Under the pieces are notes generated by a model. That model made no database searches. It saw only the letters and a list, made by a program, of their open reading frames with translations, and was not told the DNA's origin. Positions 814 through 20,144 of a DNA stretch of 22,119 nt are shown here, in pieces. A program made the translations under genes and the position numbers. This DNA comes from Granulicella sp. (GTDB taxonomy: Bacteria; Acidobacteriota; Terriglobia; Terriglobales; Acidobacteriaceae). The stretch's first letter is position 1; each line of letters begins with the position of its first letter. The stretch is from assembly GCA_003133205.1 (NCBI GenBank), contig PKWK01000298.1:1-22119 (forward strand). Direction: 5' to 3'.

Positions 814-887
814 GGACGGGCTTTAGCCCGTCCATCAGTGCCGGTAAATAAATAGGGCTTTAGCCCCTGAGGGACTCTCCGGCGCCC
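814..887. repeat. REP-like two-palindrome element, copy 1
   Basis: The first palindrome is GGACGGGCT-TT-AGCCCGTCC (814-833) and the second is GGGCTTTAGCCC (855-866). Their centres lie 37 nt apart, and CGGCGCCC follows at 880-887. The same order, nearly the same spacing and the same trailing CGGCGCCC recur at 13166-13241. The element sits just past the stop of the minus-strand permease gene, between converging genes. Such sites are typical for REP-like repeats that also act as transcript ends. Confidence 0.75.
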
Positions 888-891
888 TTCC

Positions 892-2247
892 CTAGTGGCA
901 GTCGTGCTTCGCCGCCGGCTCCGGTTCGGCATGGCAGCAATCATGTGCCGCCGCAGTCGCAGGCTCTTCATGGCAACAGTCGTGGACGACCGCAGGCGCG
1001 GGTGCAGGATGGCAGCAATCATGCACCACAGCCACCGGCTCAGGATGGCAGCAGTCATGCGCTACAACCGCCACCGGCTCCTCATGGCAGCAACTGTGCG
1101 CCTCGGTCAAAGGATCGGCCGGAGCATTGCCCATCTCGCGCAACATCGCAGGCCCGCCGGTCTTCAGGAATCGCACCAACAGCAGCGCACTCACAATAAT
1201 GAAGAAGACATTCAGGACGCTGGTGTAGTTCCAGCGCACGGATTCCTGCATGACATCGAGCTGCCGATGCGCCGGGATCAGGTGTAGCGCGGAGAACAAT
1301 CCCTCCACCACCAGAGCCGCTCCAGCCATCGCGACATAAAACACGCCCGCGAGGATCGCCGCGACCTTCAGCCCGTAGTACTTCCGATAGATATTCAGAA
1401 TCGGCAGGATCAGCAGGTCCGCAAACAGAAACGCAATCACGCCGCCAAAGCTGATGCCGCCGTTCCACAGCACCGCGGCCAGCGGCACGTTGCCCACCGA
1501 GCAGACAAACGACAACACCGCCACCAGCGGGCCGATCAAAGGACCCCACACCCGCGCCAGCACCGGATGCCCCGACAGGAAGAACGCCTGCCAGAAACTC
1601 GTCGGCACAAACGCCGCCAGAATCCCCGAGATCACCAGCCCCAGCGCAATGTCCGGCACCAACGAGTACCAGTCCATCCAGTAGTAGTGGCTGGTGGCCG
1701 TCATGCCCCGGCGCGACGTGACCTTCTGCCAGAACGTCCCCTCGTGCAGGCTCATATCCATCGCCGCGTGCCCTTCCATCCTTCCCGTCAGCCCCAGCGC
1801 AGCATGCGCGCGCGCGGCCTCGATCACGCGCGGCCGCAGAGTCGCCCGCAGCAGTATTACCAGCAGCGCGATCATGATCGGCCCGCCCACAAACTCGGCC
1901 GCCATAAACTGCCATCCCAGCATCACGCACAGCAGCACGCTCAGCTCCACCACCAGGTTGGTCGACGCGAACTGGAACGCAATCGCCGCGATAAAATCCG
2001 CGCCCTTGCGAAACAGAGTCCTCGCCAGCGCCGTCGCCGCGTACGAGCACGACGAAGATGCCGCGCCCAGCGCCGCCGCCTTCACAATCGTCTTCGCCGA
2101 CGAGTCCGGCAGCAGCTTGCTCATCTGCGCCTTCGACACCACCGCCTCGACCACTGACGACAGCAGGAACCCCAGGCACAGCGCCCACAGAATCTCCCAG
2201 GCCATAATGCCGGCCATCTCCAGCGCTTTCAGCGAAGTGTGCAGCAT
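892..2247 (-). CDS. Permease (PF03773 type) with Cys/His metal-binding tail
   Basis: A 451-residue polytopic membrane protein of the DUF318/ArsP-like permease superfamily. The start at 2247 (MLHTSLKALEMAG) is chosen over an upstream in-frame start at 2325 because AGGAGA lies just before it and family members begin there. Recognisable blocks are SSSCSYAATALARTLFRKGA, ASTNLVVELS, EGHAAMDMS and CSVGNVPLAAVLWNGGISFG. These are the paired Cys-Ser half-repeats of the family. After the last helix a hydrophilic tail of about 70 residues carries one SCCH, four DCCH and a final DCH motif, spaced 12-13 residues apart by Pro/Ala/Val/Glu linkers. The family is thought to export metals or metalloids. The tail suggests binding of a soft or borderline metal (Cu, Zn, Hg, As), but the substrate is inference. 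No metal regulator gene is adjacent. Confidence 0.85.
   Translation of the reverse strand: MLHTSLKALEMAGIMAWEILWALCLGFLLSSVVEAVVSKAQMSKLLPDSSAKTIVKAAALGAASSSCSYAATALARTLFRKGADFIAAIAFQFASTNLVVELSVLLCVMLGWQFMAAEFVGGPIMIALLVILLRATLRPRVIEAARAHAALGLTGRMEGHAAMDMSLHEGTFWQKVTSRRGMTATSHYYWMDWYSLVPDIALGLVISGILAAFVPTSFWQAFFLSGHPVLARVWGPLIGPLVAVLSFVCSVGNVPLAAVLWNGGISFGGVIAFLFADLLILPILNIYRKYYGLKVAAILAGVFYVAMAGAALVVEGLFSALHLIPAHRQLDVMQESVRWNYTSVLNVFFIIVSALLLVRFLKTGGPAMLREMGNAPADPLTEAHSCCHEEPVAVVAHDCCHPEPVAVVHDCCHPAPAPAVVHDCCHEEPATAAAHDCCHAEPEPAAKHDCH
895..1098 (-). repeat. In-gene tandem repeat encoding the H-D-C-C-H motifs
   Basis: On the plus strand, close copies of ATGGCAGCAATCATG (antisense of His-Asp-Cys-Cys-His) start at 931, 970, 1009, 1045 and 1084, that is, 39, 39, 36 and 39 bp apart. 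A shorter His-Asp-Cys-His copy lies at 895-906. The period is 12-13 codons, with less conserved linkers between units. This looks like expansion of a coding minisatellite. Confidence 0.85.
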
Positions 2248-2491
2248 AGGTCTCCTGTCAGGAAATCGTCTCTGTGGATTGGATGTTCGCCCTGAGCTGA
2301 AGTTTCCAGCCCAGCATCTTCGCACGGACCGCCGCAGCGTCAGCGGGCATATCTCGAGTATAGACGGCAGGAATTTACCCTATCCGCCGCGGCTCGTCGA
2401 AGGTCGTGGGAACACACCATCCTGAACGAATCTTAAGGATGAGTGCATAGTGCTTCTAATCTAGAGAGAGTCTCGTAATTAGGAGGACCGC

Positions 2492-13165: not shown

Positions 13166-13241
13166 CGTGGGGCTTCAGCCCCACGAAAGGCAGCCGATAA
13201 AACCAAGGCTTTAGCCCCGGGCTTCTTTCTTTGCGGCGCCC
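13166..13241. repeat. REP-like two-palindrome element, copy 2
   Basis: The first palindrome is CGTGGGGCT-TC-AGCCCCACG (13166-13185); the second has the core GGCTTTAGCC (13207-13216). Centres are 36 nt apart and CGGCGCCC follows at 13234-13241, matching the layout of copy 1 at 814-887. The spacers also agree in part (GCCGGTAAAT against AGCCGATAAA). It fills the gap between converging aroDE and the TPR gene and probably also serves as transcript end. Confidence 0.75.
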
Positions 13242-15424: not shown

Positions 15425-17671
15425 TCACCACCCCAACCGCAACACAGGCAGCAGGCTCGAATAATCATCCGTCCACAATCGCAAGCCCGCCTGCCTTTGG
15501 ATCGGCGTCGCCGCAGCCGCCACGCCCGGCTTGTCAAAGTACCCCGCGTCCGCACTCACCAGCACCCACGTCGCGCGATACGCCCCTTCAGCCGGCACAT
15601 TCATACTCTCCACCACGCGCGCCTGCATCCCCTCCGCATCTGCCAGCCGCCCAATCTCCGGCGCGAGATTCAGGTACGAGTTCGACACGTGGAACGCCAC
15701 TACCCCACCCGGCGCAAGCTGCCTCCGATACACGTCCATCGCCTCGCGCGTCAGCAGATGCAGCGGAATCGCGTCGCCGGAAAACGCATCCACCACCAGC
15801 ACATCAAAACCCTGCGGAGCCTCGCGGCGCAACGCCGCACGCCCATCGCCATCCACAACAGTGATCGCCGCCGGCGAGTCATGCAGATACGTAAACAAAT
15901 TCCGCGCAATCGGCTCAACCAGCGGATTAATCTCGTAAAAGCGAAAGCGATCTCCCTCCCGTCCATACGCAGCCAGCGTTCCAGCGCCTAGCCCGATGAC
16001 GCCCACATTCCTCGCACGTCCCTCGCAGCAGTTCCGCAGCGCAACGCCAGCGCCCGAATCTCGCCCGTAGTACGTAGTCGGAACGCGCCTGCGCCCAGCG
16101 TCCGTCATCTGCATGCCATGCCGGATGCGCCCATTCATCAGCACGCGCACCGGCCCCGTCCCGGTCGAAGCGCTTCCATCCGCGTTCTTGCCTGCCACAG
16201 CGCCGCCCTGGTCATCGAAGTCCGCCGCCGTCACGCGCAGCGAGCCATAAAAATTCCTCGCCGTCATCAACGCATGCCGTTGAACCTCGACATGCAGCAG
16301 CACGGCAAGCCCCAGCAGCAGCACGCTGCCCGTACACCACAGCGTCCGCTGCGCCCAGCCATCGTCCCACGTCACAATTGCCGCCAGCACCGCCGTCACC
16401 GCGAACGCAATCGCCAGATCGTAATTCGCGCGGAAGATCATCGGACTCGCGATGCCCACAAAGAACGTCCCCGCCACGCCGCCCGCCGCAACCAGCAGAT
16501 AGAAGACCGTGCTCCGCTCGGTGCTCGCAGGCCTCAGCCGATAGACCTCCGCGTGGCAGAACCAGCACGCGACAAACACCTCCACAAGATAAAAAAGAAC
16601 GCCCAGCCCGACCGGCAAACTCGTATCCATCTTCGACAACGCATACCCCAGGCTCGCCAGCATCACCGCCATAAACCGCGCCACCACCCATCGCCGATAC
16701 AGCCCAGGCATCTCAAACGCCAGGATGAACGTCACCAGGTACGTCGCCAGTGGCAAAATCCAAAGCAGCGGAATCGCCGCAATGTCCTGGCTAAGATGGC
16801 TGGTTACCGCGCTCAACTGCATCGCCGCACCCATCGGCAGCAGAAACCACATCCACCTCTGCCCCGCCCCCACGCCGCCGACACTGTCATCCTGCCCCCC
16901 TCCTGGCTTGTCATTCTGAGCGGAGCGAAGAACCCCCGTATTTGGTGACGCCACAAATTCAGGTGCCCCATTCATGACGGCTTCATCGTCATGTGTGGGA
17001 TATTCGGTGGGTGCCCCATGTCTCGCTTCTGAGACATGGGTTCCACTGCCACCCCGCTCCTCACGCCGGCTCCGAACCCCCAGCCACCCACACATCACCG
17101 CGAACACCACGAACCCCACCGTCCACCACTCCCGCTGCATCGCCAGCGTCATGTGCGGCTCAACCACCAGCGGATACGCCGCCAGCGCCAGCAGCGACCC
17201 CGCATTCGACAGCGCAAACAACCGGTACGGCACCCCACCACCCTCGCGCCTTGCCCACCACACCTGCAGCAGCGGGCTGGTCGAACTCAGCATCAGGAAT
17301 GGCAGCCCAATCGTCACGCCCAGCATGCCAAAGATCGTCGACACCGGATCGTCCGACACCGAGGAACTGAACTCAACATCGATCCCCATTGACCTGACCA
17401 TGATCGAAAACGCCCACTGCATCACAAGCGCCGTCACAGCCGCCCCCAGCAGCAGCAGATGCACCCGCATCCTTCCCCGCCGCACCATCCAGTGCGCGTA
17501 CAGATACCCCAGCAGCAGCACCGCCTGAAAGAACACCAGGCACGTCACCCACACCGCGGACGATCCACCCAGCACCGGCAGCAATCGCTTCGCCGCCATC
17601 GGCTCCACCAGAAACAGCAGAAACGCCGAAAGAAACACTACTCCGCCATACACCACGCGCGAACGAGCCAT
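15425..17671 (-). CDS. Fused membrane / spermidine-synthase-like protein
   Basis: A 748-residue protein. The N-terminal part has about ten membrane helices, beginning FLSAFLLFLVEPMAAKRLLP and GGSSAVWVTCLVFFQ, the usual opening of 'fused MFS/spermidine synthase' proteins. The C-terminal 200 residues form an aminopropyltransferase/methyltransferase fold: VIGLGAGTLAAYG (about 557), acidic FYEINPLV, VVDGDGRAAL and VVDAFSGDAIPLHLL. Polyamine synthesis is not proven for such fusions. ATG 17671 is preferred because the family starts there; GTG 17728 would add an extra hydrophobic segment. Residues about 200-265, between two membrane helices, are low-complexity and encoded by palindromic repeats (16910-17040). 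The gene is divergent from the PL4 lyase gene. Confidence 0.88.
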   Translation of the reverse strand: MARSRVVYGGVVFLSAFLLFLVEPMAAKRLLPVLGGSSAVWVTCLVFFQAVLLLGYLYAHWMVRRGRMRVHLLLLGAAVTALVMQWAFSIMVRSMGIDVEFSSSVSDDPVSTIFGMLGVTIGLPFLMLSSTSPLLQVWWARREGGGVPYRLFALSNAGSLLALAAYPLVVEPHMTLAMQREWWTVGFVVFAVMCGWLGVRSRREERGGSGTHVSEARHGAPTEYPTHDDEAVMNGAPEFVASPNTGVLRSAQNDKPGGGQDDSVGGVGAGQRWMWFLLPMGAAMQLSAVTSHLSQDIAAIPLLWILPLATYLVTFILAFEMPGLYRRWVVARFMAVMLASLGYALSKMDTSLPVGLGVLFYLVEVFVACWFCHAEVYRLRPASTERSTVFYLLVAAGGVAGTFFVGIASPMIFRANYDLAIAFAVTAVLAAIVTWDDGWAQRTLWCTGSVLLLGLAVLLHVEVQRHALMTARNFYGSLRVTAADFDDQGGAVAGKNADGSASTGTGPVRVLMNGRIRHGMQMTDAGRRRVPTTYYGRDSGAGVALRNCCEGRARNVGVIGLGAGTLAAYGREGDRFRFYEINPLVEPIARNLFTYLHDSPAAITVVDGDGRAALRREAPQGFDVLVVDAFSGDAIPLHLLTREAMDVYRRQLAPGGVVAFHVSNSYLNLAPEIGRLADAEGMQARVVESMNVPAEGAYRATWVLVSADAGYFDKPGVAAAATPIQRQAGLRLWTDDYSSLLPVLRLGW
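16910..16933. repeat. TCATTCTGAGCGGAGCGAAGAA-type repeat inside a gene
   Basis: The minus-strand reading gives the peptide VLRSAQNDK. From memory this is a frequent translation of a dispersed repeat found between genes in Acidobacteriota; I could not verify copy number here. It lies in the linker of the membrane/spermidine-synthase-like protein, beside two further palindromes. Confidence 0.55.
16962..16999. repeat. GGTGCCCCATTCATG palindrome, copy A (in gene)
   Basis: Arms CCCATTCATGACG (16967-16979) and CGTCATGTGTGGG (16987-16999) pair over 13 bp with two mismatches. Its lead GGTGCCCCATTCATG-A-CGG recurs with one change at 19104-19122 in the PL4 gene. Here it is antisense to the coding strand. 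Confidence 0.8.
17009..17040. repeat. GGGTGCCCCATGTCTC palindrome, copy B (in gene)
   Basis: Arms CCCATGTCTC (17015-17024) and GAGACATGGG (17031-17040) pair perfectly over 10 bp around a 6-nt loop. It shares the GGTGCCCCAT lead with copies A and C and lies 10 bp after copy A in the same orientation. Confidence 0.8.
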
Positions 17672-17737
17672 AACAAGTGCAACCAGAATAGCCTCACCCA
17701 CCAACCTGAAGACCAGAGGAATCACCACTTCACCCCG

Positions 17738-17755
17738 ATTGGAAATAATTCCAAT
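17738..17755. promoter_or_regulatory. 18-bp palindrome, candidate operator between divergent genes
   Basis: ATTGGAA-ATAA-TTCCAAT is a perfect inverted repeat with 7-bp arms. It lies in the 151-bp gap between the divergent membrane/spermidine-synthase-like gene and the PL4 lyase gene, in otherwise GC-rich DNA. Size and symmetry suit a dimeric repressor or activator such as a LacI- or GntR-like protein. No regulator gene is adjacent, so the binding protein is unknown. Confidence 0.45.
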
Positions 17756-17822
17756 ACAAATCCCGCCCCCGCGTCTTTCCCTCGCGCCTCCGCGTCACCC
17801 ATACACACACTCTGGAGACACA

Positions 17823-20144
17823 ATGCCCGTCACCCCCCGCACCACCGCCCTGCTCGCAGCCGCCCTGCTCCTAACCTCCGCAATCACTCTCCCCGCACTT
17901 GCCGCTCCCGCACCCACCGCCGCCCCGCCCGTCACCGTCACCGACGACGGTCCGACCTACACCATGTTCAACGGCTACCTCACCGTCAAAGTGGACAAGA
18001 AGACCGGCGACCTCACCTCTGTCAAAACGCCCCACACCGTCACGCCCAACATCGAACTCATGGGCTATCTCTCCGGCCACCACGCCGGCTACTGGGAGCA
18101 GTCCCCCTCCCTCGCGCCCCGCCGCGAAGCCAAAATCACCATCGATCCCGCCACCGACAACGGAGCCCGCGCCGAAGTCTCCGTCAAGGGCTACTCCGAC
18201 GGCATCTCCATCCTCGGCCCGCACCCAACGGCTGCCGGCCAGGAAGGCGGCCTCATCGCCGACCTCGAAATCCGCTACACCCTCGAGCGAGGAGCCCACG
18301 GCCTCTACACCTACGCCATCTACACCCACCAGAACACCTACCCCGCAGGCTCGGTCGGCGAGTCGCGCTTCGGCTTCAAGCTCTCCGGCACCGTCTTCGA
18401 CTGGCTCTCCATCGACGACCAGCGCAACGCCCTCATGCCCACCGGCAAAGACTGGGACGCCGGCACTGACCTCAACATGAAGGAGTCCCGCCGCCTCACC
18501 ACCGGCATCTACAAAGGCCGCGCCGAGCACAAGTACGACTACTCCGCCGACCAGTCCAAAATCCCCGCCTTCGGATGGTCCTCCACCACTCAACACGTCG
18601 GCCTCTACCTCATCAACCCCTCCTTCGAGTACCTCTCCAGCGGCCCGCTCCACTTCGAACTCACCGGCCACATCGACGACGGCGATGGCGGCGACCCCAC
18701 CCTGCTCGACTACTGGCGCGGCACCCACTACGGCGGCTCCGTCCTCAACTTCGCCGCCAACGAGCCCTGGACCAAGGTCGTCGGCCCCATCTTCATCTAC
18801 GTCCCCACCGGAGCCGACCCCAAAACCCTCTTCACCGACGCAAAGAAGAAAGTAACGGTTGAACAATCGCGCTGGCCCTACACATTCTTAAAGGGCGATG
18901 GCGTCGACTACCCGCAAGCCTCCGAACGCACCACCATTAAAGGCCACATCAAACTCATCGACCCGCAAGCCCCCACCACAAAGTTCTCCAACCTCCTCGT
19001 AGGCCTCTCCTACCCCGACCAACCCGCAGCCGTCCTGCCCCGGCCCGTCATGCCCGTAGCCCCAAAACCCGGACCACCCACCTCCAACCTGGCCCCAACC
19101 CCGGGTGCCCCATTCATGCCGGAGTCTCATCCCGGCATGGGTGGGGTCGCGCCATCCTCCCGGCCAACCCTCGTCCTCACTTCCTACCAGCCTCCCGCCT
19201 CCACACCGTCCACCTCAACTCCGCCCGCAACCCCGCCCGACAACGGCGCCACCACCGACCACTCTCTCCGCCCCAACGGCCAGCGCCGCAACCGCGGCAC
19301 CTACGTCGCACCCCGCCCCACCGGAGCCGCCGCAGGAACCCGCCCCCCAGGTTTCGTCTTCCAACCCCAGCCCATCACCTGGCAGAACGATGCCAAGCAC
19401 TACGAATTCTGGACACACGGAGCCGCTGACGGCACCTTCACCATCCCCAACGTCCGCCCCGGCGTCTACCAACTCCACGCCATCGCCGACGGAGTCCTCG
19501 GCGCCTACGACGCCACCGCCAACGTCACCATCGCCCCCGGCCAGAAGACCCTCGACCTCGGCACCATCGAGTGGCATCCCACCCACTTCGGCCAGCAGAT
19601 CTTCCAGATCGGAACCCCGAACCGCTCCGCCAAAGAGTTCTACAAAGGCGACGATCACTGGCACTGGGGAATGTATATTGAATACGCGAAGTACTTCCCC
19701 AATGATGTTGATTTCACAGTAGGTAAATCCGATCCATCCAAGGACTGGTACATCTACCAGGTCCCCCACGACACCGACTTCAAACCAGACGGCCGCGACC
19801 AGGGACGCGCCACTCCCTGGACGATCCACTTCACCATGCCGCCCAACGCGCCTACCTCCGGCAAGGCCACCCTGCGCTTCGCCATCTCCGGCTCCGGAAC
19901 CCGCCAGCTAGGCATCGCCGTCAACGGCAAGGACGTAGGCCCCGACACCGACATCGGCGGCGGCGGCGCGTCCATGATCCGCGACGGCATCGAAGGCACC
20001 TGGGTCGAGCGCGACTTCAACTTCGACGCCACCCTCCTCCACACCGGAGCCAACATCATCGTCCTCACCGTCCCCGCCGGCGGCGTCGCCAACGGCATCT
20101 GCTACGACGTAGTCCGTCTGGAGGTCGCCCCGCCCACGCCATAA
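17823..20144 (+). CDS. Secreted rhamnogalacturonan lyase, PL4 family
   Basis: A 773-residue exported enzyme of polysaccharide lyase family 4, which cleaves the pectin backbone rhamnogalacturonan I by beta-elimination. A signal peptide (residues 1-30, ending LPALAAPAP) follows ATG 17823, with GGAG seven bases upstream. Residues about 40-350 form the catalytic beta-sandwich, with EHKYDYS (Lys237, candidate catalytic lysine by family position) and YWRGTHYGG. Residues about 365-580 are the fibronectin-like domain (RTTIKGHIKL ... FTIPNVRPGVYQLHAIADG), interrupted by a Pro/Thr/Ser-rich linker at about 410-510. Residues about 590-773 are the carbohydrate-binding-like domain (GQQIFQIGTPNRSAKEF). The linker includes a palindromic DNA repeat (copy C). 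Confidence 0.93.
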   Translation: MPVTPRTTALLAAALLLTSAITLPALAAPAPTAAPPVTVTDDGPTYTMFNGYLTVKVDKKTGDLTSVKTPHTVTPNIELMGYLSGHHAGYWEQSPSLAPRREAKITIDPATDNGARAEVSVKGYSDGISILGPHPTAAGQEGGLIADLEIRYTLERGAHGLYTYAIYTHQNTYPAGSVGESRFGFKLSGTVFDWLSIDDQRNALMPTGKDWDAGTDLNMKESRRLTTGIYKGRAEHKYDYSADQSKIPAFGWSSTTQHVGLYLINPSFEYLSSGPLHFELTGHIDDGDGGDPTLLDYWRGTHYGGSVLNFAANEPWTKVVGPIFIYVPTGADPKTLFTDAKKKVTVEQSRWPYTFLKGDGVDYPQASERTTIKGHIKLIDPQAPTTKFSNLLVGLSYPDQPAAVLPRPVMPVAPKPGPPTSNLAPTPGAPFMPESHPGMGGVAPSSRPTLVLTSYQPPASTPSTSTPPATPPDNGATTDHSLRPNGQRRNRGTYVAPRPTGAAAGTRPPGFVFQPQPITWQNDAKHYEFWTHGAADGTFTIPNVRPGVYQLHAIADGVLGAYDATANVTIAPGQKTLDLGTIEWHPTHFGQQIFQIGTPNRSAKEFYKGDDHWHWGMYIEYAKYFPNDVDFTVGKSDPSKDWYIYQVPHDTDFKPDGRDQGRATPWTIHFTMPPNAPTSGKATLRFAISGSGTRQLGIAVNGKDVGPDTDIGGGGASMIRDGIEGTWVERDFNFDATLLHTGANIIVLTVPAGGVANGICYDVVRLEVAPPTP
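19104..19145. repeat. GGTGCCCCATTCATG palindrome, copy C (in gene)
   Basis: Arms CCCATTCATGCCGG (19109-19122) and CCGGCATGGGTGGG (19132-19145) pair over 14 bp with two mismatches. The lead matches copy A at 16962, but here the gene is read on the same strand as the element, giving GAPFMPESHPGMGGVAP. It lies in the Pro-rich linker of the lyase. Confidence 0.8.

What the first reader, a model, noticed from the sequence alone, without database searches (positions are those of the whole stretch)
16962..19145. Same palindrome family inside two different genes, in opposite reading sense
Copy A (16962-16999) and copy C (19104-19145) share GGTGCCCCATTCATG plus CGG and both fold into 13-14 bp hairpins; copy B (17009-17040) shares the lead. 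A and B lie antisense within the membrane/spermidine-synthase-like gene, C lies sense in the PL4 lyase gene. The encoded peptides are unrelated, so shared protein function cannot explain it; this is DNA-level spread. Each copy sits in a linker between folded parts and keeps the frame open, so the repeat may be a mobile unit tolerated only in linkers.
Basis: partly seen in the sequence, partly recalled or inferred. Interest (0 to 1): 0.72.

Follow-up and report, generated by a model that had tools for sequence, protein, structure and literature searches.

The report
Transposase-linked palindromes inside bacterial genes
Short hairpin DNA repeats that a small transposase probably spreads through soil acidobacteria have landed in floppy linkers of two unrelated genes without breaking either; it is a new family of a known kind of bacterial repeat.

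Summary
The three copies are real. In the window alone a shared 15-mer is near chance, but GGTGCCCCATTCATG occurs in 44 of 150 genomes of the order, up to 44 copies each; the reversed control occurs in none. Copies form one hairpin family: conserved GGTGCCCCA head and TGGG foot, with inner stems that change on both arms together. The repeats flank one clade of REP-associated tyrosine transposases (RAYTs): 13 of 16 clade members have a head in their flanks, against 0 of 25 other Y1 transposases. In the clearest case one copy lies about 75 nt upstream and an inverted copy at the stop codon. RAYT lineages carry different stems.

So A, B and C are RAYT-type REPs with a non-GTAG foot. 'Only in linkers' needs correcting: most copies are intergenic (8 of 124 called intragenic, 4 credible). 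A, B and an unrelated third repeat share one disordered loop; C lies in the longest low-confidence stretch of the lyase model. Intragenic REPs are already published (PMC3733652). The window's own genome is not held, so its RAYT is untested, and movement itself is inferred.

The parts
16962..16999 (+). Copy A: REP hairpin of the ATTCATG cassette; antisense to the host gene, encodes residues 225-237 (PTHDDEAVMNGAP)
17010..17040 (+). Copy B: REP hairpin of the ATGTCTC cassette (perfect stem); antisense to the host gene, residues 211-221 (THVSEARHGAP region)
   Evidence: same head in 49 of 150 genomes
16912..16932 (+). Third interspersed repeat, CATTCTGAGCGGAGCGAAGAA, unrelated in sequence to A-C; read antisense as LRSAQND
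   Evidence: pattern CATTCTGAGCGNAGCGAAGAA in 57 of 150 genomes, reversed control 0
19104..19145 (+). Copy C: REP hairpin of the ATTCATG cassette with a 14-position stem; sense, residues 428-441 (GAPFMPESHPGMGG)
15425..17671 (-). Host gene of A and B: fused MFS/spermidine synthase (P0001, 748 aa)
   Evidence: NF037959, 51.6 bits, cut-off 40; no Pfam family
16868..17047 (-). Loop between predicted helices 176-208 and 269-297 (residues 209-268) that holds A, B and the third repeat
   Evidence: AlphaFold2 model, mostly pLDDT below 50; length and content vary between orthologues
17823..20144 (+). Host gene of C: polysaccharide lyase family 4, rhamnogalacturonan lyase type (P0002, 773 aa)
   Evidence: PF06045, PF14686, PF14683

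Best explanation
Copies A, B and C are RAYT-type REP elements: short, single-palindrome, non-autonomous units spread by a clade of REP-associated tyrosine transposases in Acidobacteriaceae and relatives. Shown here: a dispersed family; a hairpin kept by paired changes; association with one RAYT clade, in part as inverted copies around the gene; different inner stems beside different RAYT lineages; gain or loss of whole units between orthologous linkers. Inferred: the RAYT recognises the folded single strand by its foot (GTGC just 5' of the CCCA stem base) and stem, cuts it and re-inserts it; insertions in genes survive when the length is a multiple of three, an open frame is used and the site is a disordered loop. 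The hairpins need have no role for the two host genes.
For: 15-mer in 11 of 20 and 44 of 150 genomes, reversed control 0. Hairpin in 199 of 250 head sites; 169 of 214 have at least 5 Watson-Crick inner pairs with their own arm, about 55 of 214 when arms are swapped between copies. RAYT clade 13 of 16 with a head in the flanks, 6 of 16 on both sides, other Y1 proteins 0 of 25. Gene anatomy in L094, L095, L106. 20 of 27 newly fetched RAYTs have a head by a loose pattern, with lineage-specific stems. All 7 genomes with a RAYT at least 67% identical to that of L094 hold the 15-mer. NF047646 REP-associated tyrosine transposase, 105 bits, cut-off 80; only PDB match 4ER8, TnpA-REP. Units present or absent in close orthologues.
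Against: 37 of the 44 genomes with the 15-mer show no RAYT of at least 67% identity in the listed rows (the list is cut at its weak end); G018 has 16 copies and no clade member over the cut-offs; G001, G002 and G003 have copies and no PF01797 match. No Y1 gene in the window and its genome is not held. Flanking copies are not always inverted (L218, L223). 3 of 16 clade members have no head, and 2 of the 13 hits (L087, L109) are marginal. ATTCATG stems also flank three less similar RAYTs (L220, L223, L232). Movement was not observed, and no DNA-level empty site was found.
Confidence: 0.87

Rival explanations
1. The repeats in the MFS/spermidine-synthase loop descend from an old insertion that is kept because the encoded peptide became useful; present mobility has little to do with it.
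For: A-type peptides in 26 of 119 orthologues, all in one sense, none in the sense frame.
Against: Units differ by whole modules among relatives of 80-88% identity: A and B in P0001 and P0003, A without B in P0004, B without A in P0006, neither in P0005 and P0007 (identities). Unrelated repeat families occupy the same loop. The loop is predicted disordered. The same family is dispersed elsewhere.
Confidence: 0.08
2. The hairpins are kept for a regulatory job such as transcription termination or mRNA stability, and only by accident resemble mobile repeats.
For: Most copies are intergenic and fold well.
Against: No Rfam match in the window; copies occur in both orientations and inside genes; the flanking of one transposase clade is not explained. 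Placement relative to gene ends was not measured.
Confidence: 0.04
3. The likeness of A, B and C is chance in GC-rich DNA.
For: In the window, 5 repeated 15-mers are not unusual: 6 of 40 shuffles reach that.
Against: Reversed-pattern control 0 in 150 genomes against up to 44 copies; compensatory stems.
Confidence: 0.01

Closest known systems
REP elements with their RAYT / TnpA-REP (REPtrons), e.g. Escherichia coli and Stenotrophomonas maltophilia (PMC6006769, PMC8266576)
   Same: Short palindrome in many dispersed copies; HUH-Y1 transposase gene flanked by the same palindrome; a specific REP family for each RAYT; imperfect pairs inside the stem
   Different: Foot is GTGC (GGTG-CCCC), not GT[AG]G; residues aligned with H101 and R104 of TnpA-REP are not kept (numbering set by me from W94-Q95); many stem cassettes
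Intragenic GTAG and CGTC REPs (PMC3733652)
   Same: REPs inside ORFs in frame, and the proposal that they sit in flexible linkers or loops; different REPs near one site of recB in two Xanthomonas species
   Different: Different tag, phylum and host genes; here three repeat families share one loop
Rickettsia palindromic elements (RPE; named in PMC3733652)
   Same: Palindromes inserted in frame in unrelated protein genes
   Different: The paper places some with CGTC repeats, for which it found no transposase; here one is associated. Sequence kinship was not tested
TIRYT/TIRtron transposases of Acidobacteria (PMC3733652, section 16)
   Same: Y1 transposases of the same phylum flanked by inverted repeats
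   Different: Described with a GGGGWSAS motif, which GGGGCACC does not fit; their sequence figure is not held, so identity could not be checked
REPINs (PMC3116915, listing only; definition recalled)
   Same: RAYT-dependent dispersed repeats
   Different: REPINs are inverted REP pairs; here 50 of 54 neighbouring heads within 200 nt are direct

Membership tests
RAYT (REP-associated tyrosine transposase) | Match to the curated family model | tested here: met
   NF047646: 105.2, 102.4 and 100.0 bits for L094, L110 and L106, cut-off 80; a RAYT of another clade (L098, 106.5) also matches, so the model does not separate clades
RAYT (REP-associated tyrosine transposase) | HUH motif and catalytic tyrosine | tested here: met
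   HVH and the Y of YIHRNPV align with 4ER8
REPtron / REP of a RAYT | Transposase gene flanked by its palindrome | tested here: met
   13 of 16 clade members against 0 of 25 others; both sides in 6 of 16
REP of a RAYT | Short palindrome in many dispersed copies | tested here: met
   Up to 44 exact A-type heads, 171 B-type heads in G012; hairpin in 199 of 250 sites
GTAG REP superfamily | GT[AG]G directly 5' of the stem | tested here: not met
   GTGC precedes the CCCA stem base in all 124 A-type copies, by the pattern searched, and in B
CGTC REP superfamily | CGTC at one end | tested here: not met
   Not seen at the ends of the unit in the copies listed (read by eye)
REPIN | Inverted pairs as the unit | tested here: not met
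   50 of 54 neighbouring heads within 200 nt are direct
TIRtron of Acidobacteria | Flanking inverted repeats with GGGGWSAS | tested here: inconclusive
   Motif does not fit, but the published sequences are in a figure that is not held
REP of a RAYT | Cleavage of the single-stranded hairpin by the RAYT | not testable with these tools
   Needs purified protein

The most novel reading that the evidence does not exclude
A RAYT lineage reads a non-GTAG foot, and its repeats have split into many stem cassettes, each spread by its own RAYT branch. Because units lie head to tail (heads 48 nt apart in this gene) and stay open in some frames, recombination between heads adds or removes 16-residue steps, turning one membrane-protein loop into a module-swapping site that feeds protein linkers.
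Probability: 0.3. Interest if true: 0.62.

Novelty: new member of a known kind. Interest (0 to 1): 0.45.

Why it matters
It gives acidobacteria, abundant in soils, a REP/RAYT family with many natural stem types beside their own transposases: a ready set for asking how a RAYT reads its hairpin when the usual GTAG tag is absent. It also shows how mobile DNA can become protein linker without breaking genes.

Tried and rejected
Chance was kept open until the genome counts, because the window alone does not exclude it. A functional RNA was looked for and not found. An inverted-pair REPIN was rejected on orientation counts. Four of the eight classifier hits (L115, L131, L139, L152) were dropped by eye as antisense or spurious frames. 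P0001 was searched in 397 genomes of the order: at E 1e-200 nothing, at E 1e-100 109 genomes; in the 30 loci read, no gene had a head in the loop, and 6 had loose matches elsewhere. PHROGs gave one family of unknown function and one transposase family. A loose set of linker patterns (51 of 119 with any repeat-type peptide) was replaced by a stricter one (37 of 119). In one search, 45 of the 53 loci were scanned; 8, partial or from other phyla, were left out. Papers: PMC3733652, passages and sections 15 and 16; PMC6006769, passages and sections 12 and 13; PMC8266576, passages; all other papers were seen in search listings only. Paper searches listed none that I recognised as describing this family; only three papers were opened and subscription journals are mostly not held.

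Full report
What is in the window. Copy A (16962-16999), copy B (17010-17040) and copy C (19104-19145) are as described. A and B lie antisense in a fused MFS/spermidine synthase (15425-17671, minus; NF037959), C sense in a family 4 polysaccharide lyase (17823-20144; Pfam). From the window alone a shared 15-mer is not remarkable: the window has 5 repeated 15-mers, shuffles average 2.3, and 6 of 40 shuffles reach 5 or more.

Spread. The window's own genome is not held, so other genomes were used. GGTGCCCCATTCATG is in 11 of 20 genomes reached through orthologue loci (124 copies, 44 of them in G009) and in 44 of 150 genomes of the order; the same pattern read backwards occurs in none of them. The two sets overlap. 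The B-type head GGTGCCCCATGTCTC is in 49 of 150 genomes, with 171 copies in G012 and one control match in all. The 124 A-type copies were fetched with flanks and listed. A common form is GGTGCCCCATTCATG, a loop, then CATGRGTGGG, often followed by a second small hairpin (CATTCGAGCGAAGCTCGAACCGC).

Hairpin under selection. Of 250 GGTGCCCCA sites in held loci and the window, 199 form the hairpin (at least 5 standard pairs in the inner seven). Of 214 with a TGGG foot in range, 169 have at least 5 Watson-Crick inner pairs with their own arm; swapping arms between copies gives about 55. Inner stems come as cassettes (ATTCATG, ATATCTGG, AGGTCTCG, ATCCTTCG and others) changed on both arms; pair 5 is T.G in 164 of 199. 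Many of these loci were fetched because they hold A-type copies, so cassette frequencies are biased, and the 5' arm of A-type copies is fixed by the search pattern.

The transposase. PF01797 matches occur in 14 of 18 genomes. In L094 (G009) a copy begins about 75 nt before the start codon and an inverted copy overlaps the end of the gene, its head 2 nt after the stop; the last residues are encoded by the repeat. L095 and L106 are similar. Of 41 Y1 proteins of 130 residues or more, the group with the motif W-[QHR]-x-[RH]-[YF]-[YF]-D-[FH] has the head in its flanks in 13 of 16, the rest in 0 of 25 (Fisher p 3e-8). Two of the 13 (L087, L109) are marginal, and 6 of 16 have heads on both sides. In the tree 16 of the 17 members of the supported branch have the motif. 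Other Y1 clades in the same genomes sit beside other palindromes such as GGGGCTTTAGCCCC. In the 150 genomes, relatives of the L094 RAYT at E 1e-15 are in 104. Of 30 loci fetched, 27 were new; 20 of these have a head by a loose pattern, and of the 7 without, at least L221, L225 and L235 show a TGTGCCCC variant. Lineages carry different stems. Those at least 67% identical to L094 carry ATTCATG, but so do L220, L223 and L232 at 52-58%; in L218 and L223 the downstream copy is not inverted. B-type heads also flank RAYTs: on both sides, inverted, at G131:C108 (30034-30552), and 36 nt upstream at G121:C98.

RAYT and copy number. All 7 genomes with a RAYT at least 67% identical to L094's, intact or in pieces (G007, G009, G030, G047, G067, G092, G118), have the 15-mer; 37 of the 44 carriers show none in the listed rows. 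So copies either outlast their transposase or use others. The L094 RAYT scores 105 bits against NF047646, cut-off 80, but an unrelated clade (L098) does as well. Its only PDB match is 4ER8, TnpA-REP, with HUH and tyrosine kept; the residues in line with H101 and R104, which PMC6006769 (section 12) ties to reading GTAG, are Phe, in line with a non-GTAG foot.

Inside genes. A codon-based classifier called 8 of 124 copies intragenic, against 435 of 904 random positions in the fetched loci, and called both window copies given to it (A and C). By eye four of the eight are credible: RecQ (repeat before HRDC), an acyl-CoA carboxyltransferase (edge of the Pfam domain), a glycosyltransferase and a membrane protein with two GAPFM peptides (the last has no Pfam match). 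A and B occupy residues 225-237 and 211-221 of the spermidine-synthase protein and a third repeat residues 244-256, all in the loop between helices 176-208 and 269-297, mostly pLDDT below 50. C, residues 428-441, lies in the stretch 399-526 with pLDDT near 30, between lyase domains I and II; that model is modest overall (mean 56).

Orthologues. In 119 complete linkers of the spermidine-synthase family, strict patterns find A-type peptides in 26, B-type in 7, the LRSAQND type in 28, any of them in 37, and no sense-frame version. Close relatives differ by whole modules: A and B in P0001 and P0003, A without B in P0004, B without A in P0006 and P0016, neither in P0005 and P0007. P0006 lacks exactly 16 residues, the 48 nt between the heads of B and A, so loss by recombination between heads is possible (inference). 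None of 45 orthologue genes scanned among the 53 loci has the head or the third repeat's core. In the lyase, 3 of 121 proteins, the window's included, have GAPFM; P0126 and P0131 lack the insert.

Reading. These are REP elements of a RAYT clade with a foot other than GTAG. Already known: REPs inside genes and the linker proposal (PMC3733652, section 15 and discussion passages), in-frame REPs in RAYT genes (PMC6006769, section 13), RAYT classes without GTAG (PMC6006769, section 12). Not met in the paper searches made: this acidobacterial family, its stem-by-lineage pairing, and the repeat-collecting loop. Transposition is inferred from anatomy and published RAYT chemistry (PMC8266576 passages), not shown.

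Noticed in passing
window 818-829, 855-866, 13171-13180, 13207-13216: Palindromes GGGCTTTAGCCC and GGCTTCAGCC/GGCTTTAGCC, of the type beside other RAYT clades (L098, L107, L108): a second REP-like family in the window.
   Followed up: partly
window 16912-16932: Interspersed repeat CATTCTGAGCGNAGCGAAGAA in 57 of 150 genomes, up to 74 copies (G050), no reversed control; its mover is unknown.
   Followed up: partly
window 899-1107: Five copies of a 56-nt repeat at 36-39 nt spacing, encoding His-Cys-rich HDCCH units at the end of ORF 892-2325(-).
   Followed up: no
G012: 171 exact copies of the B-type head in one genome, far more than elsewhere in the 150.
   Followed up: no
L094-L206: 50 of 54 neighbouring heads within 200 nt are in direct order, unlike inverted REP pairs.
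   Followed up: partly
linkers of P0005, P0014, P0017, P0049 and of P0050, P0094: Further recurring peptides in the same loop (DEMRGSLHSxTHDETVS, FDKLRAGYGAP) suggest more repeat families landing there.
   Followed up: no
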